Assembly: GCF_900102875.1 (NCBI RefSeq)
Contig: NZ_FNGH01000003.1
Location: 248,001 to 312,000 of the forward strand
Origin: Franzmannia pantelleriensis
GTDB lineage: Bacteria; Pseudomonadota; Gammaproteobacteria; Pseudomonadales; Halomonadaceae
DNA length: 64,000 nucleotides
Reading direction: 5' to 3'
Below the pieces are notes generated by a model, which saw only the letters and a list, made by a program, of their open reading frames with translations, was not told where the DNA came from and searched no databases. How positions within the stretch are numbered: position 1 is the stretch's first letter; every line of letters starts with the position of its first letter. Below, piece after piece: positions 4,639 through 39,596 of this stretch. The position numbers and the translations under genes are program-made.

Positions 4639-4651
4639 TGATGACTGCGGG

Positions 4652-4673: not shown

Positions 4674-4700
4674 ACCCGTTGCTGACAATGGGAGTCCGCC

Positions 4701-5177: not shown

Positions 5178-5192
5178 GGGGAGGAGTCGGTC

Positions 5193-14367: not shown

Positions 14368-14376
14368 GGTGGCTCC

Positions 14377-15876: not shown

Positions 15877-15950
15877 GGTGACTCCCCAGCTTGCGCGTCA
15901 GGCAACCAATCTGTGCCTTTATCGTACTGCTTGTCCAGCCTGTGGTGTAC

Positions 15951-15961
15951 TGGTCAGACCA
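15951..15961. promoter_or_regulatory. Candidate GlcC operator
   Basis: TGGTCAGACCA fits the FadR-subfamily consensus TNGTNNNACNA exactly and is a perfect inverted repeat. It lies between the divergent glcD and glcC genes, 75 bases from the glcD start. A partial second copy (TTGGTC) begins at 15966. Binding by GlcC is inferred. Confidence 0.65.
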
Positions 15962-16053
15962 GACATTGGTCTATATTGTGGAAATACTTTCCAATCTACA
16001 TCCTGGCAGCCTATCAGGCTAGTTTGCCCATCCGCAGATGCGAGGAGCCCGCC

Positions 16054-16824
16054 ATGCCTTTGACGTCTGATCACGGCCTGCGCACCCCTGACGGGGTGGC
16101 GGCGACCCTGGAACAGCTGATTCTCGATGGGGTGTTTCGCCCCGGCCAACTGCTGCCTTCCGAGCGGCGGCTATGTGACAAGCTGGGGGTGTCGCGCTCC
16201 TCGCTGCGCGAAGGGCTACGCATACTGCGCAGCAAGGGGGTAATCGACACCCGTCACGGACGAGGTTCCAGCGTGGCGCAGCTGGTGCCGCCGCGGGACG
16301 ATAACCCGCTGATGCATCTGTTCAAGAGCCAGCCCCGCACGCTCTATGACCTGTTGGAAGTGCGTGCATTGTTGGAGGGTGAGTCGGCGTTTCTTGCCGC
16401 CAGCCGTGGCACGCCTGCCGACCGGGTGTTGATCACTCGTCACTATCTGGAGATGGCGGATTATGTGGCAGAGGCTGGCATCATCGACGTCGAGCGTCTG
16501 GCGAGGCTCGACCATGCCTTCCATCTGGCGATCTGCCAGGCCTCGCACAACCCGGTGTTGGTGCATACGCTGCAGAGCCTTACCGATCTGTTGCTCAGCT
16601 CGGTATTCGCCTCGGTCAAGAATCTCTACCACCGCGCCGAGCCGCGCGAGATGATCAACCGTCAGCATGCCGACCTTCACGAAGCAGTGGTGCAGGGCAA
16701 GCCGGCGCTGGCCAAGCGGGTGGCGCTGGAGCATCTGACCAGCATCGGCGAGCGGCTGCGTGACATCGAGGTCGAGACGCAGCGTCTGGAGCGCTCTGCG
16801 ATGCGTTTGGAGGGGTGGGAGTAG
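16054..16824 (+). CDS. glcC: FadR/GntR-family regulator of glycolate genes (GlcC-like)
   Basis: This transcription regulator is probably activated by glycolate and controls glcDEFG. The 256-residue protein matches E. coli GlcC in length. A winged helix occupies residues 10-75 (LLPSERRLCDKLGVSRSSLR), followed by an FCD ligand domain with LLEVRALLEGESAFLAA and the metal-site histidines of LDHAFHLAI. I chose the ATG at 16054 because GAGGAG lies six bases upstream. It is divergent from glcD, with a matching operator in between. Confidence 0.88.
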   Translation: MPLTSDHGLRTPDGVAATLEQLILDGVFRPGQLLPSERRLCDKLGVSRSSLREGLRILRSKGVIDTRHGRGSSVAQLVPPRDDNPLMHLFKSQPRTLYDLLEVRALLEGESAFLAASRGTPADRVLITRHYLEMADYVAEAGIIDVERLARLDHAFHLAICQASHNPVLVHTLQSLTDLLLSSVFASVKNLYHRAEPREMINRQHADLHEAVVQGKPALAKRVALEHLTSIGERLRDIEVETQRLERSAMRLEGWE

Positions 16825-16827
16825 GGC

Positions 16828-17511
16828 TCAGCCGTTGGCGGCGTTGATCAACTCGTCGTCTTCAATGACACCGGCCAGAGTAACTACCTCCAGCTTGTGG
16901 CACAGGTGGTCGCGCAGGATCTGCCCCAGTCGTTTTCCATCACGCGCTTTAAGCGCCACTATCATCATCTCGTGGTCATTGACCGCTTGCCGCCAGAAGG
17001 CATCGGTCATTTTCTTCGAGTAGCGTACCCGCTTCACACGGTAGCTGAGGTTATTGTACATCTCCTCCAGCACCTCATTGTTGGCCGCTGCCAGGATGCT
17101 TTCGTGGATCTGTCGATTGACCGCGAAGTAGGGCTGCATCTCGCGGTTACGGTAGTGCTCCAGCATCTGCTCATGCAGCTGGCAGATGGCGACGATACCC
17201 TCATCGCTAATCTGTTGACAGGCCAGTTCGCCAGATAAGCCCTCCAATGCCCCCATCAGGTCGTAGGTGTCCTTGACCATTTTGACGGTTAGCTGCATGA
17301 CCCGTGCGCCGCGATTGGGTAGCAGTTCGACCAACCCTTCCGAGGCCAGCACCTTTAGGGCTTCGCGCAGCGGCGTGCGCGAAACGCCGAAGGTTTCGCA
17401 CAGTTGTTTTTCCGAGATGCGCTCACCGGGGGGCAACTCGCCATGTTCGATCAGTTCTCGGATACGATCGGCGACTTCTCGGTAAAGGTTGCGATGCTGA
17501 ATTTTGCTCAT
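16828..17511 (-). CDS. GntR/FCD-family regulator
   Basis: This repressor-type regulator has a winged helix (residues 10-70, ISEKQLCETFGVSRTPLREA) and an FCD effector domain (about 80-215). It has 227 residues from the ATG at 17511, which has AAGGA eight bases upstream. It converges on glcC with a three-base gap and is divergent from the GlcG-like gene that begins the next catabolic unit. A perfect 16-bp palindrome lies in that divergent gap. It most likely controls the TRAP-CoA-transferase unit to its right; the inducer is unknown. Confidence 0.85.
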   Translation of the reverse strand: MSKIQHRNLYREVADRIRELIEHGELPPGERISEKQLCETFGVSRTPLREALKVLASEGLVELLPNRGARVMQLTVKMVKDTYDLMGALEGLSGELACQQISDEGIVAICQLHEQMLEHYRNREMQPYFAVNRQIHESILAAANNEVLEEMYNNLSYRVKRVRYSKKMTDAFWRQAVNDHEMMIVALKARDGKRLGQILRDHLCHKLEVVTLAGVIEDDELINAANG

Positions 17512-17619
17512 GCGTGAGTTCCTTGTTCGCGGCCGGCCCGCAGGACGTCCTTGCCAGGGTGTCGCTACCCGCCTCCTCACTTTCTATGGTGGCGATGTTG
17601 ACGGCATAGTGCAAAAGGT

Positions 17620-17635
17620 ATTATGAATTCATAAT
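17620..17635. promoter_or_regulatory. Candidate operator for the GntR regulator
   Basis: ATTATGAATTCATAAT is a perfect 16-bp palindrome in the divergent gap between the GntR gene and the GlcG-like gene. A looser site with the same GAATTC centre in an AT-rich flank lies at 18251-18266, upstream of the TRAP binding-protein gene. Confidence 0.6.
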
Positions 17636-17711
17636 TCCGGCAAGGGCCTTCATTGTGCCTACGTCGCGGATCCAGGCCCATAACGATAATGACAATGAGA
17701 GGAGTTGCATC

Positions 17712-18173
17712 ATGGCTGGAAACGTATATCGCTGCCGAGTCGATCTTACCCGCGCTCAGGCGCGAAGTATCCTCGATGGTGCGTTCGCCAACGCTCGTGA
17801 AGCGCACATGGAGCCGCTCAGCGTGGTCGTTCTCGACGGCGGTGGCCATGTGGTGGCTGTTGAACGCGAGGATGGCTGTGCTCCGCTGCGCTTTCCGGTT
17901 GCCCGGGGCAAGGCGTATGCCGCGCTGGGCAACGGCGCGTCCAGCGGCGTGGTGGGAGAGCGCAATGCCGAGCGCCCGGCGTTTCTCGCTAGTGTCGCCG
18001 TTGCTTCCGGTGGTCAATTCGTGCCTGTTGCGGGTGGCGTGTTGATACTCGACGAACAGCAGTTGGTCATTGGTGCCGTTGGCGTCAGTGGCGCCTCTTC
18101 CGCCGAGGACCAGCGTGCGGCTCAGGCGGGCATTGAAGCTGCTGGTCTGACCTGGGGGTTGGTGCCGGAGTGA
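17712..18173 (+). CDS. GlcG/HbpS-family protein, second copy
   Basis: This 153-residue member of the GlcG/HbpS family has VVVLDGGGHVVAVEREDG in the first half and IGAVGVSGASSAEDQ near the end. AGAGGAG lies upstream of the ATG at 17712. Unlike the copy at 11610, it is not beside glycolate oxidase genes but opens the unit controlled by the divergent GntR gene, ahead of a TRAP transporter. Family members are often found in hydroxyacid operons, and function is unsettled. It differs markedly from the first copy, so recent duplication is unlikely. Confidence 0.8.
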   Translation: MAGNVYRCRVDLTRAQARSILDGAFANAREAHMEPLSVVVLDGGGHVVAVEREDGCAPLRFPVARGKAYAALGNGASSGVVGERNAERPAFLASVAVASGGQFVPVAGGVLILDEQQLVIGAVGVSGASSAEDQRAAQAGIEAAGLTWGLVPE

Positions 18174-18387
18174 TCGCGCGGAGCGTTCTATGTCCAATGG
18201 CGCCTTGACACCCATCGCCATCGCCGACTAGCTTGATCGTCAGGCTTTGAATAAAGAATTCAATTTATCAATGCCGGCATTGTTCACCAACCGACTAGCG
18301 GTTTCGCAACACTGCATAACCACAAAAAAGCGCAACGCGCATCCAACCAGGCATCGTGCCAACACTAGAACAAAGAGGTAACACGCC

Positions 18388-19365
18388 ATGCTTTTTCCAC
18401 GTGTCGCTGTCGCCACGCTCGCCATCGCGGTAGCGTCGGTATCGCTGCAGGCTCAGGCTCGCGAGATCACCTTTGGCCACGTCGGTGGGCCTGACTCGCT
18501 ATTTACCGATTCCGCCAACTACTTCGCCGGACTGGTAAACGAGCGTCTACCGGAACCCTACGAAGTTGTCCCGTTCGGCTCTAGCCAGCTGGGTACCGAT
18601 TCCGAACTGCTGCAGCGCTTGCGCCTGGGTACGGTCGACCTGGCGCTACCCTCCACCATTATGTCGTCGGTGGCCGACGAGTTTGGCTTGTTCGAGCTGC
18701 CTTATCTGATTCAGGACCGCGAGCACATGCAGCGGGTCGAGGAGGAGGTCTTCTGGCCCCACCTGGCGCCACTAGCCGAAGGGAATGGTTATCGTATTCT
18801 GGCCGTATGGGAAAATGGTTTCCGCCATATCACCAACAACCGCCGCGCCATCAACACCCCCGAGGACCTGCGCGGCGTCAAGCTGCGTGTGCCTCAGGGC
18901 GTGTGGCGGGTACGTATGTTCGAGGAGTATGGCGCCGAGCCTTCGCCGATGTCTCTCTCCGAGGTGTTCATGGCCCTGCAGACCGGCGTCATGGATGGCC
19001 AGGAGAACCCCTTGGCCCAGATCGCCGGCCAGCGCTTCCAGGAGGTCCAGGACTATCTATCGTTGACGGGCCATGTCTATACCCCGGCCTATCTCACCTC
19101 TGGTCGACGCTTCAACAACCTGCCCGAAGAGATACAGGAGATTATCATCGAGGCGGCCCGGGAGACCCAGGCATATGTCTATGAGCACGCCGCCCAGCTC
19201 GACCAGGACCTGATCGCGGTCATTGAAGAAGCGGGAACAGAAGTGAATGAGGTCGATACCTCGACCTTCATCGAGGCGTCTTCGCCCATTTATGAGGCGT
19301 TCGCGGCCGAGGTGCCCGGCTCCCAGGAGCTGATCGACCAAGTCCTGGCGCTCGGTAACGACTAA
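18388..19365 (+). CDS. dctP: TRAP transporter periplasmic binding protein DctP
   Basis: This is the solute receptor of a DctPQM TRAP system. The signal peptide covers about residues 1-24 (ending LQAQA). The DctP fold has the ligand-arginine segment GVKLRVPQ and the family motif MDGQENPLAQI. Its length of 325 residues is typical. AAAGAGG precedes the ATG. A hairpin follows, then dctQ and dctM. The ligand is probably the carboxylate handled by the downstream CoA-transferase or 2-hydroxyacid dehydrogenase. Confidence 0.92.
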   Translation: MLFPRVAVATLAIAVASVSLQAQAREITFGHVGGPDSLFTDSANYFAGLVNERLPEPYEVVPFGSSQLGTDSELLQRLRLGTVDLALPSTIMSSVADEFGLFELPYLIQDREHMQRVEEEVFWPHLAPLAEGNGYRILAVWENGFRHITNNRRAINTPEDLRGVKLRVPQGVWRVRMFEEYGAEPSPMSLSEVFMALQTGVMDGQENPLAQIAGQRFQEVQDYLSLTGHVYTPAYLTSGRRFNNLPEEIQEIIIEAARETQAYVYEHAAQLDQDLIAVIEEAGTEVNEVDTSTFIEASSPIYEAFAAEVPGSQELIDQVLALGND

Positions 19366-19388
19366 GTCAACGCCCGTGCTAGACCTCT

Positions 19389-19416
19389 CCCCCGCGCCGC
19401 TTGGGTGGCGCGGGGG
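19389..19416 (+). terminator. Hairpin between dctP and dctQ
   Basis: A perfect 10-bp stem (CCCCCGCGCC and its complement) with an 8-base loop lies in the dctP-dctQ gap. It has only a weak pyrimidine tail. It is a likely partial terminator or mRNA stabiliser. Confidence 0.65.
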
Positions 19417-19448
19417 CTTCTGTCCCCTACCTCAATGAGTCGAGATCC

Positions 19449-20036
19449 ATGGGTACTGTGAACCAACTCTCCCGCATCATGGAGCGTTTGCTCGAGATCA
19501 TCACGGTGGTGCTGATGGTGTCGCTGACGCTGGTGGTGCTCTATGCGGTGGTGACCCGCTACGCCTGGCGGACCCCCTCCTGGTATGACGAAGTCGCCGC
19601 CATCATGCTGGTGTGGTTGACCTACTATGCTGGGGCCTTAGCGGCACTCAAGCGCGGCCATATCGGTGTCGACGGCGTGGTGGCCGCCTTGCCGGTGCAC
19701 ATCCGCATGCCTGTCACCTATGTGTCAGAGGCGCTGTTTATCGGCTTCTTCCTTACCCTCGGCTGGGCCGGGCTGGTGGTCCTCGATGTCATGCAAGGCA
19801 TGGCGCTGATCACTCTGCGCTGGGTTCCGCTCACCTTCACTCAGTCGGTCATCCCCATCGGCGCCGGTCTCTTTATCATTGCCCAACTGCTGAGCATGCC
19901 AGGTCATTTGGCCAAGGTGCGCGCCGGCCTGACCCAGGAAGAGGAGGAGATCCGCCACGCCATTGCCGAGGCTGAGCGTGACAACGCGCGAGCCGGCTTC
20001 ACCGCGGAATCACTGACGAAGAGGGATCAGCCATGA
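19449..20036 (+). CDS. dctQ: TRAP transporter small membrane subunit DctQ
   Basis: This is the four-helix DctQ subunit, 195 residues from the ATG at 19449. Helices lie roughly at residues 14-36, 50-68, 88-112 and 130-150. TRYAWRTPSWYDEVAAIMLV is the family region after helix 1. The C-terminal tail is longer than usual and strongly acidic (EEEEIRHAIAEAE). Its end overlaps the dctM start by four bases (ATGA). An in-frame upstream start would run into the hairpin and is less likely. Confidence 0.85.
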   Translation: MGTVNQLSRIMERLLEIITVVLMVSLTLVVLYAVVTRYAWRTPSWYDEVAAIMLVWLTYYAGALAALKRGHIGVDGVVAALPVHIRMPVTYVSEALFIGFFLTLGWAGLVVLDVMQGMALITLRWVPLTFTQSVIPIGAGLFIIAQLLSMPGHLAKVRAGLTQEEEEIRHAIAEAERDNARAGFTAESLTKRDQP

Positions 20037-21316
20037 CACTACCGTTCATGATAATTGGCTTGATCGGGCTGATCCTGATGGGGCTGCCCATCGCCGTGGC
20101 GCTGGCGATCGTGGCGACGGTAGCCATCGTCGCCTTTCAGGGCCTCGAGATGCTGCCCAACATCGGGCTGACTATGTTCGAGGGGGCGAGTAGCTTTCCG
20201 CTGCTGGCGATTCCGATGTTCGTGCTGGCCGGTGCCATCATGAACACCGGTGGGATATCCAAGCGCCTGATCGCCTTTGCTTCAGCGCTGTTCGGTTTTA
20301 TTCGCGGCGGGCTGGCGATGATCAATGTCGGTGTCTCGCTGTTCTTTGCCGAAATTTCCGGCTCGGCGGTGGCCGATGTGGCGGCCACCGGCTCTGTGCT
20401 GATCCCGGCGATGAAGAAGCGCGGCTATCCCAGCTCGTTCGCGGCTGCGGTAACGTCGTCGTCGGCGTCGCTGGCGATCATTATCCCACCGTCGATCCCG
20501 ATGATCCTCTACGGGGTGATGTCCGGGGCCTCCATCGTCCAGTTGTTCGTGGCCGGTATCGTGCCGGGCCTGCTCGGCGCCGGTGGCCTGGCGGCGCTGT
20601 GTTACTACTACGCGCGCAAGTACAACTGGCCGGTGGAGGAGGTGTTCCAGTGGAAGCGGGTCAAGCAGACCGCCAAGGAGGCCAGCTGGGCGCTGACCCT
20701 GCCGATCATCATCCTTGGTTCGATCTTCGGTGGCTTCGTGACGGCTACCGAGGGCGCGGGGTTGGCGGTAGCGGCGGCGATCTTCATTAGCGCCGTGATC
20801 TATCGTGAACTGGATATGCGTACCCTCTACAAGGCGATCATTGATGGTGGCCAGCAGACCGCGGTGGTGATGCTGCTGGTGGCGGCCTCGGCGCTGATCG
20901 GGGTCTTCCTGACCGAAATGCGTATGCCGCAGCAGCTGGCCCAGGCGGTGCTTGGCCTGACGGATAACAAGTACGCCATCCTGATGATGCTGAACGTCTT
21001 CTTCCTGCTGATCGGGCTGTTCCTGCACTCGGCGGCGGCGATCATTCTGGTGGTGCCCATCGTCATGCCGCTGGTCGGTGCGGCCGGGATCGATCCCGTG
21101 CACTTCGGCCTGGTGGTCTGTCTCAACCTGGCCATTGGCCAGCAGACGCCGCCGGTGGCGAGCGTGCTGATCACCGCCTGCTCGATCGCCAAGAGTGATG
21201 TCTGGTCGGTGACCCGCTCCAACCTGGGCTTTATCAGCGTCCTGCTGGTGGTGCTGTTGATGGTCACCTATATCCCGGCAATTCCCATGGCGCTGGTCGA
21301 GTTCTTCTATCGCTAA
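20033..21316 (+). CDS. dctM: TRAP transporter large membrane subunit DctM
   Basis: This is the large permease subunit, 427 residues with about 12 helices. Typical DctM stretches are AIPMFVLAGAIMNTGG, FFAEISGSAVADVAATG and IIIPPSIPMILYGVMSG. It is translationally coupled to dctQ. With DctP and DctQ it imports a carboxylate using the sodium gradient. Confidence 0.93.
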   Translation: MTLPFMIIGLIGLILMGLPIAVALAIVATVAIVAFQGLEMLPNIGLTMFEGASSFPLLAIPMFVLAGAIMNTGGISKRLIAFASALFGFIRGGLAMINVGVSLFFAEISGSAVADVAATGSVLIPAMKKRGYPSSFAAAVTSSSASLAIIIPPSIPMILYGVMSGASIVQLFVAGIVPGLLGAGGLAALCYYYARKYNWPVEEVFQWKRVKQTAKEASWALTLPIIILGSIFGGFVTATEGAGLAVAAAIFISAVIYRELDMRTLYKAIIDGGQQTAVVMLLVAASALIGVFLTEMRMPQQLAQAVLGLTDNKYAILMMLNVFFLLIGLFLHSAAAIILVVPIVMPLVGAAGIDPVHFGLVVCLNLAIGQQTPPVASVLITACSIAKSDVWSVTRSNLGFISVLLVVLLMVTYIPAIPMALVEFFYR

Positions 21317-21338
21317 GCCCGCTATCGTTAGCCAAGGC

Positions 21339-21370
21339 ACCCCTCCCGGCCGAGTCGCGCCAGGAGGGGT
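21339..21370 (+). terminator. Hairpin between dctM and crotonase-fold gene
   Basis: ACCCCTCC and GGAGGGGT form an 8-bp stem around a 16-base loop, just ahead of the next gene's ribosome site. There is no T-tract. It may separate transporter and enzyme expression levels. Confidence 0.45.
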
Positions 21371-21382
21371 ATGGAGAGGCAT

Positions 21383-22168
21383 ATGAACGAAGAGAGCCTG
21401 CTGTTCGAGGTGCGTGACGGGGTGGCCTGGCTGGGTTTCAATCGCCCACAGAGCCGCAATGCCATGACCTGGGAGATGTACGACGCCCTGGAGGCCTGCT
21501 GCGATCAACTGGCAAAGGATGAGCATGTCCACGCCGTGGTACTGCATGGGGTCGGCGGGGAGGCCTTCGTGGCCGGCACCGATATCACCCAGTTCAGCCA
21601 CTTTTCCAAGCCCGAGGACGCGATCGGCTACGAGCGCCGTATCGATCGCGTGGTCGGCAAGCTGGAAACGCTGAACAAGCCGACCATTGCACTCGTCGAG
21701 GGTGCCTGCGTAGGTGGCGGAGCGGCACTCGCCATGGTCTGCGATTTTCGCTACTGCACACCGAGTCTCAAGTTTGGGGTGCCCATCGCCAAGACCCTGG
21801 GCAACTGCCTGTCGATCACCAATGTGTCGCGGCTGATCGACATGGTGGGTATCGCACGCACCAAGGAAGCGCTGATGCTTGGCAAGCTGTTCAGCGCTGA
21901 CGAGGCCAGCATGGCCGGCCTGGTGAATGCAGTGATCGAGCCCGACGAGATCCATGCCCGGGTGGCCGATGTGGCTTCCCAGTTCACTCGGCGCGCACCG
22001 CTCACGGTGCAGGCCAGCAAGGCCCTGATTGGGCGGGTGCAGGAGCAGCGGCGTGCCGCACGTGATGCCGGCGATGACTGGGTTATCACTTGCTACATGA
22101 GCGACGATTTCAAGGCGGCGGTCAACAAGTTCGTCAACAAGACACCGTTCGAGTGGACGGGTCACTAA
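21383..22168 (+). CDS. Crotonase-superfamily protein (enoyl-CoA hydratase-like) lacking both catalytic glutamates
   Basis: This 261-residue crotonase-fold protein is expected to act on an acyl-CoA. The oxyanion-hole segments AFVAGTDITQF (about residue 61) and ACVGGGAALAMVCDF (about 108) are present. The two glutamates of true enoyl-CoA hydratases are not: by hand alignment the GGGCELA glutamate is Ala115 and the QPEI glutamate is Ile135. Hence plain hydration of an enoyl-CoA is doubtful, and lyase, hydrolase, isomerase or decarboxylase chemistry is possible. The ATG at 21383 follows GGAGAGG. The gene precedes a CoA-transferase and follows a TRAP transporter. Confidence 0.85.
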   Translation: MNEESLLFEVRDGVAWLGFNRPQSRNAMTWEMYDALEACCDQLAKDEHVHAVVLHGVGGEAFVAGTDITQFSHFSKPEDAIGYERRIDRVVGKLETLNKPTIALVEGACVGGGAALAMVCDFRYCTPSLKFGVPIAKTLGNCLSITNVSRLIDMVGIARTKEALMLGKLFSADEASMAGLVNAVIEPDEIHARVADVASQFTRRAPLTVQASKALIGRVQEQRRAARDAGDDWVITCYMSDDFKAAVNKFVNKTPFEWTGH

Positions 22169-22188
22169 TGACAAGCGAGGTGGAGCCG

Positions 22189-23379
22189 ATGCTTCCCTTA
22201 GACAACCTGAAAATATTGGATATCTCTCAGATCATGGCCGGCCCCTACTGCACCATGGTGCTGGCCGACATGGGGGCCGAGGTGATCAAGGTCGAGAAGA
22301 CCAACGGCGGCGACGATAGCCGCCAGATGGGGCCCTACGTCAACGATGAATCGACCTGCTTCTCGCAGATCAACCGCAACAAGAAGAGCATCTCCTTGAA
22401 CCTCAAGGATGAGCGGGCCCGGCAGATCTTCTATCGCCTGGCCGAGGATGCCGACGTGATCGTCGAGAACTACCGTACCGGGGTCACCAAGTCGCTCAAG
22501 ATAGACTACGACACCATCAAGGCCATCAACCCGGGCATCGTATACTGCTCGATCTCCGGCTACGGCCAGACCGGTCCTTACAGCCACCGCGGCGGCTTCG
22601 ACCTGGTGGCCCAGGGCATGAGTGGCCTGATGTCGATGACCGGCGAACCCGGGCGTCGGCCATTGAAGACCGGCATCGCGGTCTACGACATCGGCGCCGG
22701 AATCACCGCGGTCTACTCGATCCTCGCCGCACATATCCACAAGATGACCACCGGCGAAGGGCAGCATATCGATATTGCGATCACCGAGTGCGGCCTGCCG
22801 TGGTTCGCCTGGGAGGCGGCAGCCTATTTCGCCGAGGGCAGGGTGCCGGAGCCGACCGGTTGGCGTCATAGGGTGTCGGCGCCTTATCAGGCGCTCAAGA
22901 CGCGGGATGGCTATCTGATGCTGGGCTGTGCCAATCAGCGTACCTGGGAGCGCCTGTGCGGCGATGTGCTGGAGCGCGACGATCTTATGGCCGATCCCCG
23001 TTTTGTCACCAATCACGAGCGCGGCCAGCACGTCGAAGAACTTGAGGCGCTGCTCGAGGAGCTCATGGCCGAGCAGGACACCGACTATTGGCTGACGCTG
23101 TGCGATAAGGCAGGGGTGCCGGCGGGGCCGATCAACGATTTCGGCCAGGCGATGCAAGACGAGCACTATCTGGCCCGTAGCATGGTCGAGGAGATGGAGC
23201 ACCCGGTTATCGGCAAGATGAAGACCATCGGCTTTCCTAGCAAGTTCTCGCGCACGCCGTCGCAGATCCGCTCACCGGCACCGCTGTTCGGCCAGCATAC
23301 CGACGAGGTGCTGACCGCGACCCTGGGACTCTCCCCGCAGGATATCGCCACGCTGCGCGCCGAGGGATGCGTCAAGTAA
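22189..23379 (+). CDS. CaiB/Frc-family (family III) CoA-transferase
   Basis: It transfers CoA between carboxylic acids and so activates an imported acid, probably using an acyl-CoA donor such as succinyl-CoA. The 396-residue protein starts with the family motif LDISQIMAGPYCTMVLADMG. Asp138 in GGFDLVAQGMSGLM is the expected acyl-carrying aspartate. I chose the ATG at 22189 because GAGGTGGAG precedes it. An ATG at 22168 overlapping the previous stop (TAATG) is also possible and would add seven residues. The gene is co-oriented with and 20 bases from the crotonase-like gene. Confidence 0.9.
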   Translation: MLPLDNLKILDISQIMAGPYCTMVLADMGAEVIKVEKTNGGDDSRQMGPYVNDESTCFSQINRNKKSISLNLKDERARQIFYRLAEDADVIVENYRTGVTKSLKIDYDTIKAINPGIVYCSISGYGQTGPYSHRGGFDLVAQGMSGLMSMTGEPGRRPLKTGIAVYDIGAGITAVYSILAAHIHKMTTGEGQHIDIAITECGLPWFAWEAAAYFAEGRVPEPTGWRHRVSAPYQALKTRDGYLMLGCANQRTWERLCGDVLERDDLMADPRFVTNHERGQHVEELEALLEELMAEQDTDYWLTLCDKAGVPAGPINDFGQAMQDEHYLARSMVEEMEHPVIGKMKTIGFPSKFSRTPSQIRSPAPLFGQHTDEVLTATLGLSPQDIATLRAEGCVK

Positions 23380-23444
23380 CGCTGTTTTGATGACATCAAT
23401 TGCATTCATTATCAAAAGTACAACCTGTTCCTGGAGACACCACC

Positions 23445-24653
23445 ATGTTGAAGCTCGATTTCCATCCCTCCGGCCGCCACTTCCTGCAGATTCCCGGCCC
23501 GTCGCCGGTGCCGGACCGTATCCTGCGCGCCATGAGCCTGCCGACCATCGACCACCGCGGCCCCGAGTTCGGCGCCCTGGGCCTTGAGCTGCTGGCCAAG
23601 ATCCAGAAGATCTTCAAGACCAAGCATCCGGTCATCATCTATCCGGCCTCAGGCACCGGGGCCTGGGAGGCGGCATTGGCCAATACCATGTCGCCGGGGG
23701 ATCGGGTGCTGATGTTCGAGACCGGCCACTTCGCCACCCTGTGGCAGAAAATGGCGGTGCGCCTGGGCCTTGAGCCAGAGTTCATCGGACTGCCGGGCTA
23801 CGAGGGCTGGCGGCATGGTGTTCAGGCCGACATGATCGAGGCGCGGCTCAAGGAAGATAGCGGCCACGACATCAAGGCGGTGTGCGTGGTGCATAACGAG
23901 ACCTCCACTGGCGTCACCAGCAACATCGCCGCGGTACGCCGTGCCATCGATGCTGCCGGTCATCCGGCGCTGCTGATCGTGGATACCATCTCGGGGCTGG
24001 CCAGTGCCGATTTCCGCCACGACGAGTGGGGGGTGGACGTGACAGTGTCGGGTTCCCAGAAGGGCCTGATGCTGCCGCCCGGCATCAGCTTCAATGCGCT
24101 CTCTCCCAAGGCCATCGAGGTCAGTAAGGCGGCCAAGCTGCCCAAGAGTTTCTGGGCCTGGGACGAGATTCTCGAGGCCAACCAGAACGGCTACTGGCCC
24201 TACACACCGAGCACCAACCTGCTCTACGGCCTTAACGAGGCACTGGACATGCTCCTCGACGAGGGCTTGGAGAATGTGTTGGCTCGTCATCAACGTTGGG
24301 CAGCAGGGGTACGTACCGCCGTCGAGGCCTGGGGGCTCGAGATCCAGTGCCAGGAACCCGAGGTCTATTCGCCGGTACTTACCGGCGTCGTGGTGCCGGA
24401 AGAGATCGACGCCGATGAGGTGCGCAAGATTATCTACGAGCGCTTCGATCTCTCGCTGGGCACGGGGCTTGGCAAGGCCAAGGGCAAGATGTTTCGTATC
24501 GGTCACCTGGGCGACTGCAATGACCTGACGCTGATCGCGACGCTGGGCGGCTGTGAGGCTGGCATGAAACTGGCCGGCATCTCGCTCAAAGGCAGTGGCG
24601 TTGCGGCGGCGCTTGACTACTTCGCAGCCAACCCGCTGAACCGCGCTGTTTGA
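23445..24653 (+). CDS. Serine-glyoxylate/alanine-glyoxylate-type aminotransferase
   Basis: This PLP-dependent class V aminotransferase transfers an amino group to glyoxylate (or from serine or aspartate). The 402-residue protein has IPGPSPVPDRILRAM at the start, IVDTISGLAS around Asp180 and the Schiff-base lysine Lys206 in VSGSQKGLMLPPG. GGAG precedes the ATG at 23445. A 7-bp inverted repeat (TTTTGAT/ATCAAAA, 23385-23417) sits in the short gap upstream. Its place beside a CoA-transferase and a hydroxyacid dehydrogenase suggests that the pathway yields glyoxylate or hydroxypyruvate. Relatives include BhcA, but no other beta-hydroxyaspartate-cycle genes are nearby. Confidence 0.88.
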   Translation: MLKLDFHPSGRHFLQIPGPSPVPDRILRAMSLPTIDHRGPEFGALGLELLAKIQKIFKTKHPVIIYPASGTGAWEAALANTMSPGDRVLMFETGHFATLWQKMAVRLGLEPEFIGLPGYEGWRHGVQADMIEARLKEDSGHDIKAVCVVHNETSTGVTSNIAAVRRAIDAAGHPALLIVDTISGLASADFRHDEWGVDVTVSGSQKGLMLPPGISFNALSPKAIEVSKAAKLPKSFWAWDEILEANQNGYWPYTPSTNLLYGLNEALDMLLDEGLENVLARHQRWAAGVRTAVEAWGLEIQCQEPEVYSPVLTGVVVPEEIDADEVRKIIYERFDLSLGTGLGKAKGKMFRIGHLGDCNDLTLIATLGGCEAGMKLAGISLKGSGVAAALDYFAANPLNRAV

Positions 24654-24688
24654 CCGCTTGGCCCAGGTGAACGACTGAGGAGGGCGGC

Positions 24689-27600
24689 ATGACGTCCCTG
24701 ACCGACAAGACCCAATCCCGCGATGCCAAGGTTAAGCCGGTGACCGAGCTGGCAACACGGCTATCCCGTGAACTTGCAGGCGAGGTGCTGTTTGATCAGG
24801 CCTCGCGGGGGCGCTACTCGACTGATGCATCGATATATCAGGTAACACCGGTGGGAGTGGTTATTCCGCGTCACCAGGCGGACTTGGGGCTGGCGCTGGA
24901 TATTGCCCGCGACGCCAAGGTGCCGGTGCTGGCCCGGGGAGCAGGGACCAGCCAGTGTGGCCAGACGGTGGGCGAGGCGCTGGTGATCGATACCACGCGC
25001 TATTTGAAGGAAGTGATCGAGTTCGATGCTGATGCGCGCACGGTGACGGTGGAGCCCGGCATCGTACTCGACCACCTCAATGCCTGGCTGAAGCCACATG
25101 GCCTTTGGTACCCGGTGGATGTCTCGACCAGCGCCCAATGCACCATCGGCGGGATGGCTGGAAACAATTCCTGTGGGTCGCGCTCGATTCGCTACGGCAA
25201 CATGGTTCACAACGTGCTCGGCGTCGAGGCACGAATGGCAGATGGCAGCGAGGTGGCATTCGGTTTTGTCGACCGCCTGGCCGAGGGCTCGCCTGAACAG
25301 CGACTCGCTGCGCAGGTCAAGGCGATTGCCGAGCGGGTCGGCCCGGAGATTCGCGAGCACTTTCCCAAGGTGCTGCGACGCGTTGGGGGTTACAACCTCG
25401 ATCTGTTCGATTGTCAGAACCCCAAGCCTTATGATCCCGATGGGCGGGTTAACCTGGCGCACCTGCTGGTTGGTTCAGAGGGCACCCTCGGGGTCAGCCG
25501 GCGTATTACCCTGCGACTCTCGCCGTTGCCCACGCACAAGGTGCTGGGGGTGGTGAATTTCCCCACCTTCTATCAGGCGATGGATTTCACCCAGCATATC
25601 GTTGAACTCGATCCCACCGCGGTGGAGTTGGTCGATCGCACCATGATCGATCTGTCGCTGGAGAATCCCGCCTTCCGACCGGTGATCGAGAAGGCGTTGA
25701 TCGGCAAGCCGGAGGCGATTCTGCTGGTGGAGTTTGCCGGCCAGGACGAGGCCGCACAGCGCCAGGCGTTAGCGTCTCTCAACCAATTGATGGGCGACCT
25801 GGGACTGCCGGGCAGCGTGGTCGATATGCCCGAGGCCGCCGAGCAGAAAGCGCTGTGGAACGTGCGCAAGGCGGGGCTCAACATCATGATGAGCATGAAG
25901 GGTGACGGTAAGCCGGTATCCTTTATCGAGGATTGTGCGGTGCCGCTGGAGCACCTTGCTGAGTACACCGACAAACTCACCCAAGTATTCCACCGCTACG
26001 GTACTGAAGGCACTTGGTACGCTCACGCTAGCGTTGGCACTCTGCACGTGCGTCCGATCCTCGATATGCGCCGTGATGGCGCCGAAAAGATGCGCGAGAT
26101 CGCCGAGCAGGCATCGGCGTTGGTGCGCGAATACAAAGGCGCCTACTCCGGTGAGCACGGCGATGGGCTGTGTCGCGGCGAGTGGGTGGCCTGGCAATTC
26201 GGTCCCACCGTCAACGACGCCTTCCGCGACATCAAGCAGCTGTTCGACCCCGAGAACCTGCTCAATCCGGGCAAGATCGTCGATACGCCGAAGATGGATG
26301 ACTCGCGCTACTTTCGCTTCGCCAAGGATTATCAGGCGATTCCGCTGACCCCGGTATTCGACTGGTCGGCCTGGAATGTCAAACGCGATCCGCTAACTGG
26401 TGATCAGACGCCTCCCGGCTCAGGAGGGGATGCCACCCATGGCCTGGCCATGGCGGTAGAGATGTGCAACAACAATGGGCACTGCCGCAAGTTCGATGCT
26501 GGCACCATGTGCCCAAGCTACCGCATCACCCAAGATGAGCAGCACCTGACCCGAGGGCGCGCCAATACCCTGCGACTGGTGTTGTCCGGCCAACTCGGTG
26601 ACGAAGGGCTAGCCAGCGACGATGTCAAGGAGGCGCTGGATCTGTGCGTATCGTGCAAGGGCTGCAAGCGCGACTGCCCGACCGGGGTCGACATGGCCAA
26701 GTTTAAGATCGAGGCTCGCACTGCCAGGGCTCGCGCCATGGGGCTGAGCTTGCGCGACCGCATGGTCGGTGAAATGCCGCGCTATGCGCCCTGGGCGAGC
26801 CGCTTTTCCGGACTGCTTAACGGCGTCGAACGAGTGCCGTTCCTTGCCCGACGCGTAAAACAAGTGCTCAAGCTGGCACCGCAGCGTGCCCTGCCGGTCT
26901 TCGACGGAAACTTCCTGGCCGCCGCCGAGGCGCCCAACGGCATTGCTGCCGGGGCTCGCGAAGTGCTGCTGTTCGTCGATACCTTCAACAACTACATGGA
27001 GGGTGCTAATGCCGAGGCCGCCAAGCGTGTATTGGAGGCGGCCGGCTATCGGGTGCATCTCAACGTCAAGCAGGGGCAGCGGCCACTCTGCTGCGGTCGC
27101 ACCTATCTGTCGTCGGGCCAGTTCGACAAGGCCAAGGCCGAAGCGCGACGCACCCTCGAGCATCTGATGCCGTTTGTGCAGCGTGGCGTATCGATCGTCG
27201 GCCTCGAGCCGTCGTGTCTGCTCACCATGCGAGATGAGTTCTTGCAGTATGGATTCGGCGACGAGGCGCGAGCGCTGGCCGACGCGGCCTACCTGTTCGA
27301 AGAGTTCCTAGTCGAGGCCATGGCCGCCGAGCAGTTGCCTCTGACGCTCAAACCATTGCCCCACAAACGGGTGATGCTCCATGGCCATTGTCACCAGAAG
27401 GCCTTCGATGCCTTGCGACCGGTGGAGCAGGTGCTGGGTTGGATTCCTGAACTCCAGGTCGAGACCATCACCTCATCCTGCTGCGGCATGGCGGGGAGCT
27501 TCGGCTACGAGGTGGAACACTACGATGCCTCGCTAAAGATGGCTGAGCTGTCGCTGCTGCCGGCGATCCGTGAGGCGGATAGTGACGCCGTGGTTGTTGC

Positions 27601-27697
27601 TGACGGGACCAGCTGCCGTCACCAGATCAAGGACGGCAGCGGGCGAGAGGCGGTGCATGTGGCGCGCCTGCTGGAGCAGGCGCTGGACGTCAGCTGA
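24689..27697 (+). CDS. Fused FAD/Fe-S D-2-hydroxyacid dehydrogenase (YdiJ-like)
   Basis: This 1002-residue flavoprotein joins a GlcD-like half and a GlcF-like half in one chain. The FAD-binding PCMH domain is about residues 40-260, with VLARGAGTSQCGQTVG and TIGGMAGNNSCGSRSIRYG. An FAD-oxidase C domain follows, with AYSGEHGDGLCRGEW near residue 490. Two cysteine clusters then follow (CNNNGHCRKFDAGTMCPSY and CVSCKGCKRDCPTG), and CCG-type domains with CCGRTY and CCGMAGSFG complete the chain. Family members oxidise D-2-hydroxy acids (D-2-hydroxyglutarate, D-lactate) into the respiratory chain. GAGGAGG precedes the ATG. It ends the unit started at 17.7 kb. Confidence 0.88.
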   Translation: MTSLTDKTQSRDAKVKPVTELATRLSRELAGEVLFDQASRGRYSTDASIYQVTPVGVVIPRHQADLGLALDIARDAKVPVLARGAGTSQCGQTVGEALVIDTTRYLKEVIEFDADARTVTVEPGIVLDHLNAWLKPHGLWYPVDVSTSAQCTIGGMAGNNSCGSRSIRYGNMVHNVLGVEARMADGSEVAFGFVDRLAEGSPEQRLAAQVKAIAERVGPEIREHFPKVLRRVGGYNLDLFDCQNPKPYDPDGRVNLAHLLVGSEGTLGVSRRITLRLSPLPTHKVLGVVNFPTFYQAMDFTQHIVELDPTAVELVDRTMIDLSLENPAFRPVIEKALIGKPEAILLVEFAGQDEAAQRQALASLNQLMGDLGLPGSVVDMPEAAEQKALWNVRKAGLNIMMSMKGDGKPVSFIEDCAVPLEHLAEYTDKLTQVFHRYGTEGTWYAHASVGTLHVRPILDMRRDGAEKMREIAEQASALVREYKGAYSGEHGDGLCRGEWVAWQFGPTVNDAFRDIKQLFDPENLLNPGKIVDTPKMDDSRYFRFAKDYQAIPLTPVFDWSAWNVKRDPLTGDQTPPGSGGDATHGLAMAVEMCNNNGHCRKFDAGTMCPSYRITQDEQHLTRGRANTLRLVLSGQLGDEGLASDDVKEALDLCVSCKGCKRDCPTGVDMAKFKIEARTARARAMGLSLRDRMVGEMPRYAPWASRFSGLLNGVERVPFLARRVKQVLKLAPQRALPVFDGNFLAAAEAPNGIAAGAREVLLFVDTFNNYMEGANAEAAKRVLEAAGYRVHLNVKQGQRPLCCGRTYLSSGQFDKAKAEARRTLEHLMPFVQRGVSIVGLEPSCLLTMRDEFLQYGFGDEARALADAAYLFEEFLVEAMAAEQLPLTLKPLPHKRVMLHGHCHQKAFDALRPVEQVLGWIPELQVETITSSCCGMAGSFGYEVEHYDASLKMAELSLLPAIREADSDAVVVADGTSCRHQIKDGSGREAVHVARLLEQALDVS

Positions 27698-27714
27698 GCT
27701 AGGACGCATTGACA

Positions 27715-29013
27715 TCAGTGCGTTTGCCAGGCGGGGCCGTTCGGATAGGTGTGCTCTGCCAGTGAGTCGGCCTTTAGGGTGATGCTGTAACCCGGAGCGG
27801 TAGGTACCTGGTAGTGACCTTTGCGGATCACTACCGGGTGTTCAAAGTGCTCGTGAAGGTGGTCGACGTATTCGAGAATGCGTCCTTCCAGGGAGCCGGA
27901 CACGGCAATGTAGTCGAACATCGAGACGTGCTGTACGTACTCACACAGCCCGACGCCGCCGGCGTGGGGGCATACCGGCACGCCATACTTGGCAGCCATC
28001 AGTAGTACCACGATCACCTCGTTGAGTCCGCCGAGTCGCGCCGCATCAAGCTGGCAGTAGTCGATGGCCTCGGCCTGCAGTAGCTGCTTGAACATCACCC
28101 GGTTGTGGCAGTGCTCGCCAGTGGCTACGCCGATCGAGCCCAAGCGGTGGCGAATTTCGGCGTGGCCGAGGATATCGTCGGGGCTGGTCGGCTCCTCGAT
28201 CCATAGTGGGTCGAACTCGGCCAGCTGGCGCATGTTGGCAATGGCTTCGTCGACGTCCCACATTTGGTTGGCATCCATCATCAGCGCGCGGTCCCAGCCG
28301 ATCTCCTCTCGCAGAATCTGCGCACGGCGTCGATCTTCCTCAAGATCCCCGCCGACTTTCTGCTTGAAATGGGTCCAGCCCTCGGCCAGAGCCTCGCGGG
28401 CCAGGCGGCGTACCTTGTCATCCGGGTAGCCGAGCCACCCTGCCGAGGTTGTATAGCCGGGATAGCCGTGCTCGCGCAGCTCGGCTTCGCGAGCATCGCG
28501 ACCGGCGGCTTGGCGTTTGAGCAGGCCCAGTGCCTCCTGCGGGGTGAGAACGTCGCTGACGAAACGGAAGTCGAGGCTTTTAACCAGTTGCTCAGGCGAC
28601 ATGTCGACTAGCAACTTCCATACCGGTTTACCTTCTGACTTGGCCCACAGATCCCAGAGCGCATTAACGATGGCGGCGGTGGCTAGATGGATGACCCCCT
28701 TCTCGGGGCCGGTCCAGCGCAGTTGGCTGTCGCTAGTCGTGATCCGGCGCCAGAAGCTGCCCATATCAGCTGTGATCGTCTCGAGTGTTTCCCCTTCAAC
28801 CAGGTAGGCCAGGGATTCCACTGCCTTGACGCAGAGTTCGTTGCCGCGGCCAATGGTGAACGTCAAGCCATTTCCCTTGAGGCCAGCATCGGTATGCAGG
28901 GTGACGTAGGTGGCCGAGTAGTCGGGTGCCGCGTTCATGGCATCGGAGCCGTCCAGCGAGCGCGAAGTAGGGAAGCGAATATCCTCAACCGTGAGGTGGG
29001 TAATCGACGTCAT
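27715..29013 (-). CDS. L-fuconate dehydratase (enolase superfamily)
   Basis: It dehydrates L-fuconate to 2-keto-3-deoxy-L-fuconate. The 432-residue protein carries the complete mandelate-racemase-type active site: Lys217 and Lys219 in FKQKVGG, metal ligands Asp248 (MDANQ), Glu274 (IEEP) and Glu300 (ATGEHCHN), and His350 (CPHAGG). Spacing is almost identical to that known for the Xanthomonas enzyme. AAGGAG precedes the ATG at 29013 by six bases; an ATG 21 bases upstream is less likely. Later steps of L-fuconate breakdown are not in the window. The neighbouring lactate permease is notable because that pathway can end in lactate. Confidence 0.9.
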   Translation of the reverse strand: MTSITHLTVEDIRFPTSRSLDGSDAMNAAPDYSATYVTLHTDAGLKGNGLTFTIGRGNELCVKAVESLAYLVEGETLETITADMGSFWRRITTSDSQLRWTGPEKGVIHLATAAIVNALWDLWAKSEGKPVWKLLVDMSPEQLVKSLDFRFVSDVLTPQEALGLLKRQAAGRDAREAELREHGYPGYTTSAGWLGYPDDKVRRLAREALAEGWTHFKQKVGGDLEEDRRRAQILREEIGWDRALMMDANQMWDVDEAIANMRQLAEFDPLWIEEPTSPDDILGHAEIRHRLGSIGVATGEHCHNRVMFKQLLQAEAIDYCQLDAARLGGLNEVIVVLLMAAKYGVPVCPHAGGVGLCEYVQHVSMFDYIAVSGSLEGRILEYVDHLHEHFEHPVVIRKGHYQVPTAPGYSITLKADSLAEHTYPNGPAWQTH

Positions 29014-29074
29014 GGGGGTCTCCTTAGGTGTCATACTGTAATACTAGCTTAGCGGTTTCGCTGGCAGCAAACGA

Positions 29075-29103
29075 CTGCGCCCCACCTATAAGGTGGGGCG
29101 CAG
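29075..29103 (-). terminator. Terminator downstream of lactate permease gene
   Basis: A perfect 12-bp stem (CTGCGCCCCACC and its complement) with a 5-base loop follows the lldP stop on the minus strand. It separates lldP from the L-fuconate dehydratase gene, so the two probably have different promoters. Confidence 0.7.
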
Positions 29104-29131
29104 CTGGTACAGACGTTGCGTCAGGGCGTGG

Positions 29132-30829: not shown

Positions 30830-31241
30830 GAGGCAAGATTCCTCTTGTTTTACTCAAGCATCGCCAGCGATGCCAGCAACGGGAGCGAGACGCTTGCGTG
30901 TCCATGGGACGTCAGCACTGGCCGACCTCCCCGCGAACCGTCGCCATGGACGGGTCGTGGCAAGATAATCGCATTAGGGCCTTTGAATCCACTCGTGGAT
31001 AATTGGTATGACCAGTGGGCGTTTGGCTCTAGTGTAATCAGTTAACATATTGAGAAGTAAGGGGAAGTAATGAGTTTTTGGAGTGGATTGCTTAGCTTTT
31101 TCGCATCCTGATGACGACTTGGTTCGACTAATGGACAATGGGTTATGTCGATTGAACCGATGAAGCATGGGGTGGTGATAGATGTCGACTAATGCTTTGA
31201 TTCATAGAAATGATAAGTCAGCCGGCGAGGAGAAAACCGAC
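30830..31241. other. Divergent intergenic region upstream of lldP and GST gene
   Basis: This gap of about 410 bases should hold promoters for both genes. Its left half is GC-rich. The right half (about 30990-31200) is AT-rich and contains the TGGTATGACCA operator candidate. An in-frame ATG at 31182 could extend the GST gene but lacks a ribosome site. I see no other gene. Confidence 0.45.
31004..31014. promoter_or_regulatory. Candidate FadR/LldR-type operator upstream of lldP
   Basis: TGGTATGACCA is an exact match to the TNGTNNNACNA consensus of FadR-subfamily regulators and sits in an AATTGG context like known LldR sites. No lldR gene is in the window, so the regulator must be GlcC or a protein encoded elsewhere. 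Confidence 0.55.
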
Positions 31242-35127: not shown

Positions 35128-35213
35128 CGGCCGGTCGGCATGAGGCATGCCGTATCCACACCCTGATGCACAGCAATCACAATTCACAATCCGTTCGTGC
35201 AGGAGTCAACGCC

Positions 35214-36182: not shown

Positions 36183-36193
36183 CTCAGCAGGTG

Positions 36194-36214
36194 GGCGGGC
36201 ACCGGGTGTCCGCC
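36194..36214 (+). terminator. Hairpin between dctP and dctQ
   Basis: GGCGGGCAC and GTGTCCGCC pair over 9 bp (one G-U in RNA) with a 3-base loop, 11 bases after the dctP stop. No T-tract follows, which fits differential expression rather than termination. Confidence 0.6.
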
Positions 36215-36236
36215 TTATCCTGCGGGAGACGCACAC

Positions 36237-38089: not shown

Positions 38090-38110
38090 CGCATGACGCG
38101 AGGAGCAAAG

Positions 38111-39580: not shown

Positions 39581-39596
39581 CAGCAAGGAGACTCCC

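What the first reader, a model, noticed from the sequence alone, without database searches (positions are those of the whole stretch)
16828..27697. Unassigned pathway: TRAP, modified crotonase, CoA-transferase, glyoxylate aminotransferase and FAD/Fe-S hydroxyacid dehydrogenase under one GntR regulator
Seven co-oriented genes to the right of a divergent GntR gene combine uptake, CoA activation, a non-canonical crotonase-fold enzyme, glyoxylate transamination and respiratory 2-hydroxyacid oxidation. I know of no described pathway with this set. One inference: an imported (possibly unsaturated or hydroxy) dicarboxylate is loaded with CoA, cleaved or rearranged by the crotonase-like enzyme, and a glyoxylate product is aminated to glycine. 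No malyl-CoA-type lyase is present, which makes the crotonase-like protein the candidate for C-C cleavage.
Basis: partly seen in the sequence, partly recalled or inferred. Interest (0 to 1): 0.72.

Follow-up and report, generated by a model that had tools for sequence, protein, structure and literature searches.

The report
Hydroxy-acid operon with unusual crotonase
A bacterial gene cluster, repeated across several phyla, looks like an undescribed way of importing a small hydroxy acid (most likely tartrate), tagging it with coenzyme A and splitting it into two-carbon pieces with an enzyme whose usual catalytic residues are missing.

Summary
A divergent GntR gene (16828-17511) faces eight co-oriented genes: glcG-like, dctPQM, crotonase, class III CoA-transferase, class V aminotransferase, FAD/Fe-S 2-hydroxyacid dehydrogenase. 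The order recurs in Halomonas and Vreelandella. The core recurs, rearranged and with other transporters, in Rhodobacterales, a betaproteobacterium, Acidobacteria and Amycolatopsis. In 299 genomes of the phylum, crotonase and dehydrogenase coincide (23 in both, 5 + 5 in one only). A shared palindrome, ATTATGAATTCATAAT, lies before operon genes in 36 of 158 loci. This looks like one regulon. The crotonase subfamily lacks both catalytic glutamates, so its hydratase name is doubtful. Best reading: tartrate, or a close 2,3-dihydroxy acid, is loaded with CoA and cleaved by the crotonase to glyoxylate plus glycolyl-CoA; glycolate is oxidised to glyoxylate, and glyoxylate becomes glycine. For it: adjacent glycolate-oxidase genes; tartrate dehydrogenase near the crotonase in two phyla and present in 25 of 28 crotonase genomes against 33 of 271 others. 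Substrate and cleavage are inferred; tartronate decarboxylation and an oxidation-first route remain open. Ten searches of an open full-text library found no such pathway described.

The parts
16828..17511 (-). FCD-type GntR regulator (ATG 17511)
   Evidence: GntR and FCD domains over gathering scores; above no named NCBIfam cut-off, best is phosphonate-associated phnR_burk 110.6 of 271.5 bits
17620..17635 (.). perfect 16-bp palindrome ATTATGAATTCATAAT, proposed GntR operator
   Evidence: the only exact match of its 14-bp core in the genome; sites with 3 or fewer mismatches upstream of operon genes in 36 of 158 loci
17712..18173 (+). GlcG/HbpS-like (DUF336) protein, role unknown
   Evidence: PF03928 94.7 bits; recurrent member
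18251..18266 (.). weak second operator-like site (GAATTC core, 5 mismatches) before dctP
   Evidence: better copies at a like place in relatives
18388..19365 (+). TRAP solute-binding protein DctP
   Evidence: PF03480, TIGR00787 over cut-offs; nearest solved relatives 4nq8, 7bbr, 9bhf, 9bh3, 4p9k and sialic-acid SiaP
19449..20036 (+). TRAP small permease DctQ
   Evidence: PF04290
20033..21316 (+). TRAP large permease DctM
   Evidence: PF06808, TIGR00786 over cut-offs
21383..22168 (+). crotonase-fold protein, PRK06144 subfamily, without the two catalytic Glu (A115, I135)
   Evidence: NF004796 352 bits over cut-off 272; alignments; AlphaFold2 model mean pLDDT 93
22168..23379 (+). class III (CaiB/BaiF) CoA-transferase
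   Evidence: PF02515 440 bits; Asp174 in 84 of 84 aligned sequences
23445..24653 (+). class V aminotransferase, glyoxylate type
   Evidence: BhcA model 452 of 650 bits; 383 bits to serine-glyoxylate aminotransferase 6pk1
24689..27697 (+). fused FAD (GlcD-like) and Fe-S/CCG (GlcF/GlpC-like) protein, presumed D-2-hydroxyacid dehydrogenase
   Evidence: Pfam; YdiJ model 500 of 1350 bits
12061..15876 (-). glycolate oxidase genes glcD (14377-15876), glcE (13294-14367), glcF (12061-13293, by eye), neighbours of the operon
   Evidence: GlcE over cut-off, 524 bits
16054..16824 (+). GlcC-like regulator, divergent from glcD (named by eye)
   Evidence: sequence; conserved neighbour

Best explanation
A GntR-controlled regulon takes up and breaks down a small 2,3-dihydroxy acid, most likely tartrate. 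The TRAP system imports it. The class III CoA-transferase makes tartryl-CoA, using glycolyl-CoA as CoA donor. The crotonase-like enzyme holds the thioester in its oxyanion hole (backbone of T66 and G112) and, with a relocated acid/base (invariant E84, acidic residue 88), splits it by retro-aldol into glyoxylate and glycolyl-CoA. The transferase frees glycolate. GlcDEF and/or the FAD/Fe-S enzyme oxidise glycolate to glyoxylate, and the aminotransferase turns glyoxylate into glycine. Shown: gene set, conservation, shared palindrome, co-occurrence, loss of the catalytic glutamates. Inferred: substrate, every reaction, active-site roles, regulator binding.
For: Of 80 crotonase loci, the CoA-transferase lies within 300 bp in 58; within 8 kb the aminotransferase lies in 27 and FAD/Fe-S in 23. 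In 299 genomes of the phylum crotonase and FAD/Fe-S protein are each in 28, 23 shared; all 28 FAD/Fe-S genomes have the aminotransferase. In 11 of 12 crotonase genomes where FAD/Fe-S is not near the crotonase, it lies within 2.3 kb of the aminotransferase. Glycolate: glcD/glcE adjoin the operon in 10 of the 11 loci L012-L022, and glcDEF/glcC adjoin a tartrate-dehydrogenase/crotonase pair in Caballeronia grimmiae. Tartrate: a tartrate dehydrogenase lies within 2.1 kb of the crotonase in 8 fetched loci: 3 Acidobacteria-type, 4 Burkholderiaceae (two of one species), 1 unnamed; over the TIGR02089 cut-off in the 4 tested. It is over cut-off in 25 of 28 crotonase genomes against 33 of 271 others. 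Glycerate kinase near the Halotalea copy fits glyoxylate metabolism. Crotonase: no Glu at 115 or 135 in 70 of 70; T66, E84, N141 in 70 of 70, residue 88 D/E in 64 of 70.
Against: No call shows a substrate. Co-occurrence tests ignore relatedness: several sampled genomes share a genus or family. Among 29 loci with long flanks outside L012-L033 and L091, only 6 have the aminotransferase and 5 FAD/Fe-S nearby. Tartrate dehydrogenase near the crotonase is only 1 of 34 fetched places in the phylum sample and 5 of 80 in the scan; in those 8 loci neither aminotransferase nor this FAD/Fe-S protein is nearby, and in the window's own genome it is 38 kb away among unrelated-looking genes. A GlcE relative is found in 32 of 33 genomes with crotonase or FAD/Fe-S (18 over cut-off; background not measured), so FAD/Fe-S as glycolate dehydrogenase looks redundant. 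L005, L007, L075 and L128 show no CoA-transferase nearby. 7bbr, the second-best solved relative of DctP, was seen with 2-keto-3-deoxygluconate, not tartrate. Two operons carry a distant crotonase that keeps one Glu and has neither T66, E84 nor N141. The scan patterns cover residues 131-139 and about 25-33, so conservation there is partly built in.
Confidence: 0.38

Rival explanations
1. Tartronate (hydroxymalonate) route: the CoA-transferase makes tartronyl-CoA and the crotonase acts as a decarboxylase, like methylmalonyl-CoA decarboxylase, giving glycolyl-CoA; glycolate is oxidised to glyoxylate and aminated. It is a hydroxy analogue of the oxalate/formate CoA-transferase cycle.
For: Decarboxylating crotonases need no glutamate pair (recalled); explains glycolate oxidase, FAD/Fe-S enzyme and aminotransferase without a second product. 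The transferase has oxalate/formyl-CoA transferases among its solved relatives.
Against: Does not explain the tartrate dehydrogenase link. Methylmalonyl-CoA decarboxylase model 110 of 257 bits.
Confidence: 0.17
2. Oxidation-first tartrate route: the FAD/Fe-S enzyme oxidises a tartrate isomer to oxaloglycolate, the aminotransferase makes 3-hydroxyaspartate, a PLP aldolase or other lyase splits it to glycine and glyoxylate; crotonase and transferase serve another isomer or step.
For: FAD/Fe-S and aminotransferase are the tightest pair (28 of 28 genomes); a GlcE relative is already there in 32 of 33 genomes; three unnamed loci carry a GntG-type PLP aldolase in the same gene group (profile run on one).
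Against: No such aldolase is among the window's operon genes; the aminotransferase is closest to glyoxylate-using enzymes.
Confidence: 0.14
3. Tetronate route: D-erythronate or L-threonate is loaded with CoA and split to glycolaldehyde and glycolyl-CoA.
For: 7bbr, a near relative of DctP, binds a sugar acid, and structures related to another TRAP receptor bind pantoate or erythronate (passages); otnK and otnC relatives lie near three crotonase loci, with a threonate dehydrogenase over cut-off in one.
Against: No aldehyde dehydrogenase among the operon genes; does not explain tartrate dehydrogenase; in L025 the threonate genes lie behind their own LacI-type regulator (by eye).
Confidence: 0.08
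4. Malate-type route: D-malyl- or 3-methylmalyl-CoA is cleaved to acetyl- or propionyl-CoA and glyoxylate.
For: Same chemistry as malyl-CoA lyase; the KEGG label of tartrate dehydrogenase also names D-malate dehydrogenase (passage seen).
Against: Leaves glycolate oxidase and FAD/Fe-S enzyme unexplained.
Confidence: 0.08
5. The crotonase is an epimerase or isomerase of the CoA ester, not a lyase, feeding tartrate dehydrogenase or the FAD/Fe-S enzyme.
For: Tartrate dehydrogenase near the crotonase without the aminotransferase in L005, L007, L043, L047, L048, L072, L075, L128.
Against: No two-base arrangement was demonstrated; glyoxylate-type aminotransferase unexplained.
Confidence: 0.07

Closest known systems
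Malyl-CoA / citramalyl-CoA type routes (CoA-transferase + CoA-ester lyase giving glyoxylate or pyruvate)
   Same: A CoA-transferase loads a hydroxy-dicarboxylate and a lyase splits it (proposed here)
   Different: Their lyases are HpcH/HpaI-fold (recalled); the operon genes hold none, a crotonase takes the place
Hydroxycinnamoyl-CoA hydratase-lyase (crotonase-fold retro-aldol)
   Same: Fold and proposed retro-aldol of a beta-hydroxyacyl-CoA
   Different: NCBIfam score 108.5 of 276 bits; it first hydrates with a Glu that is missing here (recalled)
beta-Hydroxyaspartate cycle (BhcA)
   Same: Related glyoxylate aminotransferase (452 of 650 bits)
   Different: Below cut-off; no gene of BhcB, C or D type (families recalled) among the operon genes
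Tartrate dehydrogenase route (TtuC type)
   Same: Probably the same substrate class; genes near each other in two phyla
   Different: NAD-dependent, no CoA, no aldol cleavage (recalled)
Formyl-CoA:oxalate CoA-transferase + oxalyl-CoA decarboxylase
   Same: CoA recycling logic (proposed) and transferase superfamily
   Different: Oxalate transferase model 241.7 of 504.2 bits; no ThDP decarboxylase among the operon genes

Membership tests
Enoyl-CoA hydratase (crotonase proper) | two catalytic Glu (rat 144 and 164, numbering recalled) | tested here: not met
   A115 and I135 by alignment to 5z7r; no Glu at either place in 70 of 70 aligned sequences, 135 lying inside a scan pattern
Crotonase superfamily | fold and oxyanion-hole Gly motif | tested here: met
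   PF00378 141.8 bits; model mean pLDDT 93; best folds are enoyl-CoA hydratases, TM 0.87
NCBIfam PRK06144 subfamily | score over curated cut-off | tested here: met
   352 of 272 bits; no paper with this model name in the library
Methylmalonyl-CoA decarboxylase | NF008506 cut-off | tested here: not met
   110 of 257 bits
Hydroxycinnamoyl-CoA hydratase-lyase | NF006588 cut-off | tested here: not met
   108.5 of 276 bits
Class III CoA-transferase | catalytic Asp (Asp169 type, recalled) | tested here: met
   Asp174 in 84 of 84 aligned sequences; its match to the catalytic Asp is by recalled motif; substrate not testable
Glutarate, mesaconate, oxalate or formate CoA-transferase | curated cut-offs | tested here: not met
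   325 of 750, 276 of 700, 266 of 522, 242 of 504 bits
L-aspartate-glyoxylate aminotransferase BhcA | NF045640 cut-off | tested here: not met
   452 of 650 bits
D-2-hydroxyglutarate dehydrogenase YdiJ | NF049975 cut-off | tested here: not met
   500 of 1350 bits
TRAP transporter DctPQM | all three subunits | tested here: met
Tartrate catabolic system | binding, activation or growth on tartrate | not testable with these tools
   only genome context bears on it

The most novel reading that the evidence does not exclude
A crotonase-fold aldolase without the canonical glutamates splits tartryl-CoA into glyoxylate and glycolyl-CoA, and a class III CoA-transferase recycles the CoA from glycolyl-CoA to the next tartrate: a new pathway for tartrate that needs only catalytic CoA and is spread over several phyla.
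Probability: 0.3. Interest if true: 0.8.

Novelty: new variant of a known kind. Interest (0 to 1): 0.6.

Why it matters
It would give a function to a crotonase subfamily that NCBIfam calls enoyl-CoA hydratase although both catalytic glutamates are gone, and would add a CoA-dependent route from a small hydroxy acid to glyoxylate and glycine. The conserved gene set with swappable TRAP, TTT and MFS transporters makes the substrate question directly testable in laboratory strains. A glyoxylate/glycolyl-CoA lyase would also interest those who design carbon-fixing or glycolate-salvage routes.

Tried and rejected
Enoyl-CoA hydratase, methylmalonyl-CoA decarboxylase, hydroxycinnamoyl-CoA lyase, BhcA, YdiJ and named CoA-transferases as identities: rejected as memberships by residue or cut-off.

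FAD/Fe-S as the only glycolate dehydrogenase: weakened, because a GlcE relative is found in 32 of 33 genomes of the set at E up to 1e-30, 18 over cut-off, one of the 32 a fragment at a contig end.

Literature: ten searches. Searches listed no paper. [quoted passage not shown] One search listed seven, of which PMC11668362 was opened for passages. One search counted 22 papers and showed 15 in the listing; PMC8307300 was opened for passages and those describe no such pathway; the other 21 were not opened. One search listed PMC8307300 again and PMC7895386 (listing only). The library lacks most subscription papers, so absence is weak evidence.

RNA families: none at gathering score in 13000-31000. 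Promoter and terminator scan: not above shuffles. First palindrome search, perfect or near-perfect 18-mers only, found few sites; the mismatch scan followed. Control: of 60 shuffled palindromes 47 hit no locus and 57 hit five or fewer of 158; the three with 21-24 keep the GAATTC core. The 158 loci include some that cover the same place twice.

In the phylum searches only up to 8 (crotonase), 2 (FAD/Fe-S) or 6 (families) candidates per genome were scored, so misses are possible. The crotonase alignment holds 69 loci chosen from the 80 plus the window; 11 were left out.

Not done: no tree of the crotonase, no genus-level correction of the co-occurrence counts, no ligand modelling; the model's coordinates were not among the files scripts could read.


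Full report
What is there. The window lies in a 4.4 Mb genome (contig C21). Reading frames and profiles confirm a divergent GntR/FCD gene and, to its right, a GlcG/HbpS-like gene, dctP, dctQ, dctM, a crotonase-fold gene, a class III CoA-transferase, a class V aminotransferase and a 1002-residue FAD plus Fe-S/CCG protein. The crotonase stop overlaps the transferase start, dctQ overlaps dctM, and the gaps from dctM to the FAD gene are 66 bases or less. To the left are glcC- and glcDEF-type genes; to the right, convergent, an enolase-superfamily dehydratase and a lactate-permease-type gene (several named by eye).

Conservation. In the 11 Halomonas/Vreelandella loci L012-L022 the order GntR, dctPQM, crotonase, transferase, aminotransferase, FAD/Fe-S is the same; glcG was not detected in three (L012, L014, L015) and glcD/glcE adjoin in 10. 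A Pseudomonas locus has the same order; Stutzerimonas has GntR and glcG on the other side; Salinicola and Halotalea loci show no aminotransferase or FAD/Fe-S gene in the stretch. Ruegeria and a Granulosicoccaceae bin hold the same nine protein types rearranged, Limimaricola all but glcG. Amycolatopsis, Terriglobia and Lacisediminimonas hold transferase, crotonase, aminotransferase and an FAD/Fe-S protein (39, 39 and 63% identity). Across the 80 loci the transferase lies within 8 kb in 62, the aminotransferase in 27, FAD/Fe-S in 23, a GntR relative in 30; of the 52 with at least 5 kb on both sides: 44, 22, 20, 28. Of the 29 of these outside L012-L033 and L091 (Halomonadaceae plus two Pseudomonadaceae): 21, 6, 5, 8. 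So the transferase/crotonase pair is the constant part; full operons are frequent mainly in Halomonadaceae.

Independent sample. In 299 genomes drawn evenly from the phylum, the crotonase profile (E up to 1e-75) hits 28, the FAD/Fe-S protein (E up to 1e-250) 28, both 23 (Fisher p 6e-25, not corrected for relatedness; few candidates scored per genome). All 28 FAD/Fe-S genomes have the aminotransferase (E up to 1e-110; 51 of 299 have it). Of 34 fetched crotonase places other than the window's own, 10 have both aminotransferase and FAD/Fe-S nearby. In 12 crotonase genomes FAD/Fe-S is not near the crotonase, and in 11 of these it lies within 2.3 kb of the aminotransferase. Of the five FAD-only genomes two carry a more distant crotonase (32 and 36%) in the same gene group. 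In the family sample the crotonase is in 22 of 61 genomes, so it is an accessory trait.

Regulation. A perfect palindrome lies between GntR and glcG at 17620-17635. The 14-base core has one exact and two two-mismatch places in the genome; the control pattern has one. That GntR binds it is inferred.

Crotonase. Alignment to a canonical crotonase (5z7r) puts A115 and I135 at the two catalytic Glu. In 70 aligned sequences position 115 is A, G, S, V, N, M or I and 135 is I, V or M; T66, E84 and N141 are invariant, 88 is D or E in 64. Positions 131-139 and about 25-33 lie inside the scan patterns, so their conservation is partly built in. In the same alignment 5z7r has Gly and Asn where E84 and D88 stand. 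By recalled numbering, 88 matches the His of 4-chlorobenzoyl-CoA dehalogenase; it is His in the two distant operon crotonases, which however keep a Glu at 115 and lack T66, E84 and N141. The model is confident (mean pLDDT 93) and folds like enoyl-CoA hydratases. Water addition is therefore unlikely; enolate chemistry at a thioester (aldol cleavage, decarboxylation, epimerisation) is the sensible range.

Substrate. Glycolate: glc genes adjoin the operon and a tartrate-dehydrogenase/crotonase pair in Caballeronia grimmiae; a GlcE relative occurs in 32 of the 33 genomes with crotonase or FAD/Fe-S (18 over cut-off; background not measured). Glyoxylate: the aminotransferase is nearest to serine-glyoxylate aminotransferase and BhcA. 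A C4 compound that yields both at once is tartrate. A tartrate dehydrogenase stands within 2.1 kb of the crotonase in L043, L047, L048 (Acidobacteria-type), L005, L007, L072, L075 (Burkholderiaceae; L005 and L075 are one species) and L128 (unnamed), over cut-off in L005, L007, L043 and L128. It is over cut-off in 25 of 28 crotonase genomes against 33 of 271 others. Against: in those eight loci the aminotransferase and this FAD/Fe-S protein are not nearby, and L128's genome has neither at the thresholds used, so it may be a parallel route for other isomers. The transporter changes between TRAP, TTT, MFS and a bile-acid:sodium-type symporter, all of which can carry hydroxy acids (recalled). The nearest solved TRAP receptors are listed; a 2024 paper on another receptor reports 7BBR with 2-keto-3-deoxygluconate, two others with uronates and further ones with pantoate or erythronate, and warns that most ligands were co-purified (PMC11668362, passages only).

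Mechanism and its weak points. The proposed cycle needs only catalytic CoA. The steps are family-level inferences except the missing hydratase residues. The unexplained part is the FAD/Fe-S enzyme: with GlcDEF present it may be a second glycolate dehydrogenase or may act on another hydroxy acid, which is the oxidation-first rival. Three unnamed loci with a GntG-type PLP aldolase in the same gene group fit that rival.

Verdict. A real, widely conserved and, as far as ten searches of an open library show, undescribed catabolic gene set. Known enzyme families, new combination, and one subfamily whose chemistry is probably misnamed.

Noticed in passing
5-6698: By eye: galactarate/altronate dehydratase-like, aldehyde dehydrogenase, HpcH/HpaI aldolase-like and TctCBA genes in a row, which look like a hexarate degradation cluster; not run against profiles.
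   Followed up: no
27715-30829: Enolase-superfamily dehydratase, L-fuconate type by eye (no named cut-off met), and a lactate-permease-type gene, convergent with the operon; the permease is found in 10 of the 11 loci L012-L022 (all but L015).
   Followed up: partly
35166-48254: By eye: a second TRAP system, a mannitol-dehydrogenase-type gene, a mannonate-dehydratase-like gene and a sugar-kinase-like gene; the window looks like a sugar-acid island.
   Followed up: no
G000:C21:230714-231775 (outside the window, L159): Tartrate dehydrogenase over the TIGR02089 cut-off, 38 kb left of the crotonase, beside LysR- and hydrolase-type genes (by eye).
   Followed up: yes
L155:9078-10145, L157:5300-6421, L158:7319-8500: GntG-type PLP aldolase (profile run on L155 only, the others by eye) between GntR and FAD/Fe-S, between MFS and aminotransferase, and between MFS and FAD/Fe-S genes; hints at a hydroxyamino-acid branch.
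   Followed up: partly
L153:6806-7660: Isocitrate-lyase/PEP-mutase family gene just before the FAD/Fe-S gene; below all named cut-offs.
   Followed up: partly
L142:8519-9286: 255-residue gene, MhpD-like by eye, no NCBIfam match at 1e-12, between transporter and FAD/Fe-S gene in a genome where the crotonase profile found nothing at its threshold.
   Followed up: partly
L004:5987-6718; L091: dctP frame looks broken in the Halomonas sp. PA16-9 plasmid; several genes give two matches in the Halomonas sulfidaeris record, perhaps sequencing errors.
   Followed up: no
   Followed up: no
L109, L116, L117: Two tandem copies of the aminotransferase in these unnamed operons; the same genomes hold a second crotonase locus with CoA-transferase, TctA and a PdxA-like gene (L114, L113, L118).
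   Followed up: partly
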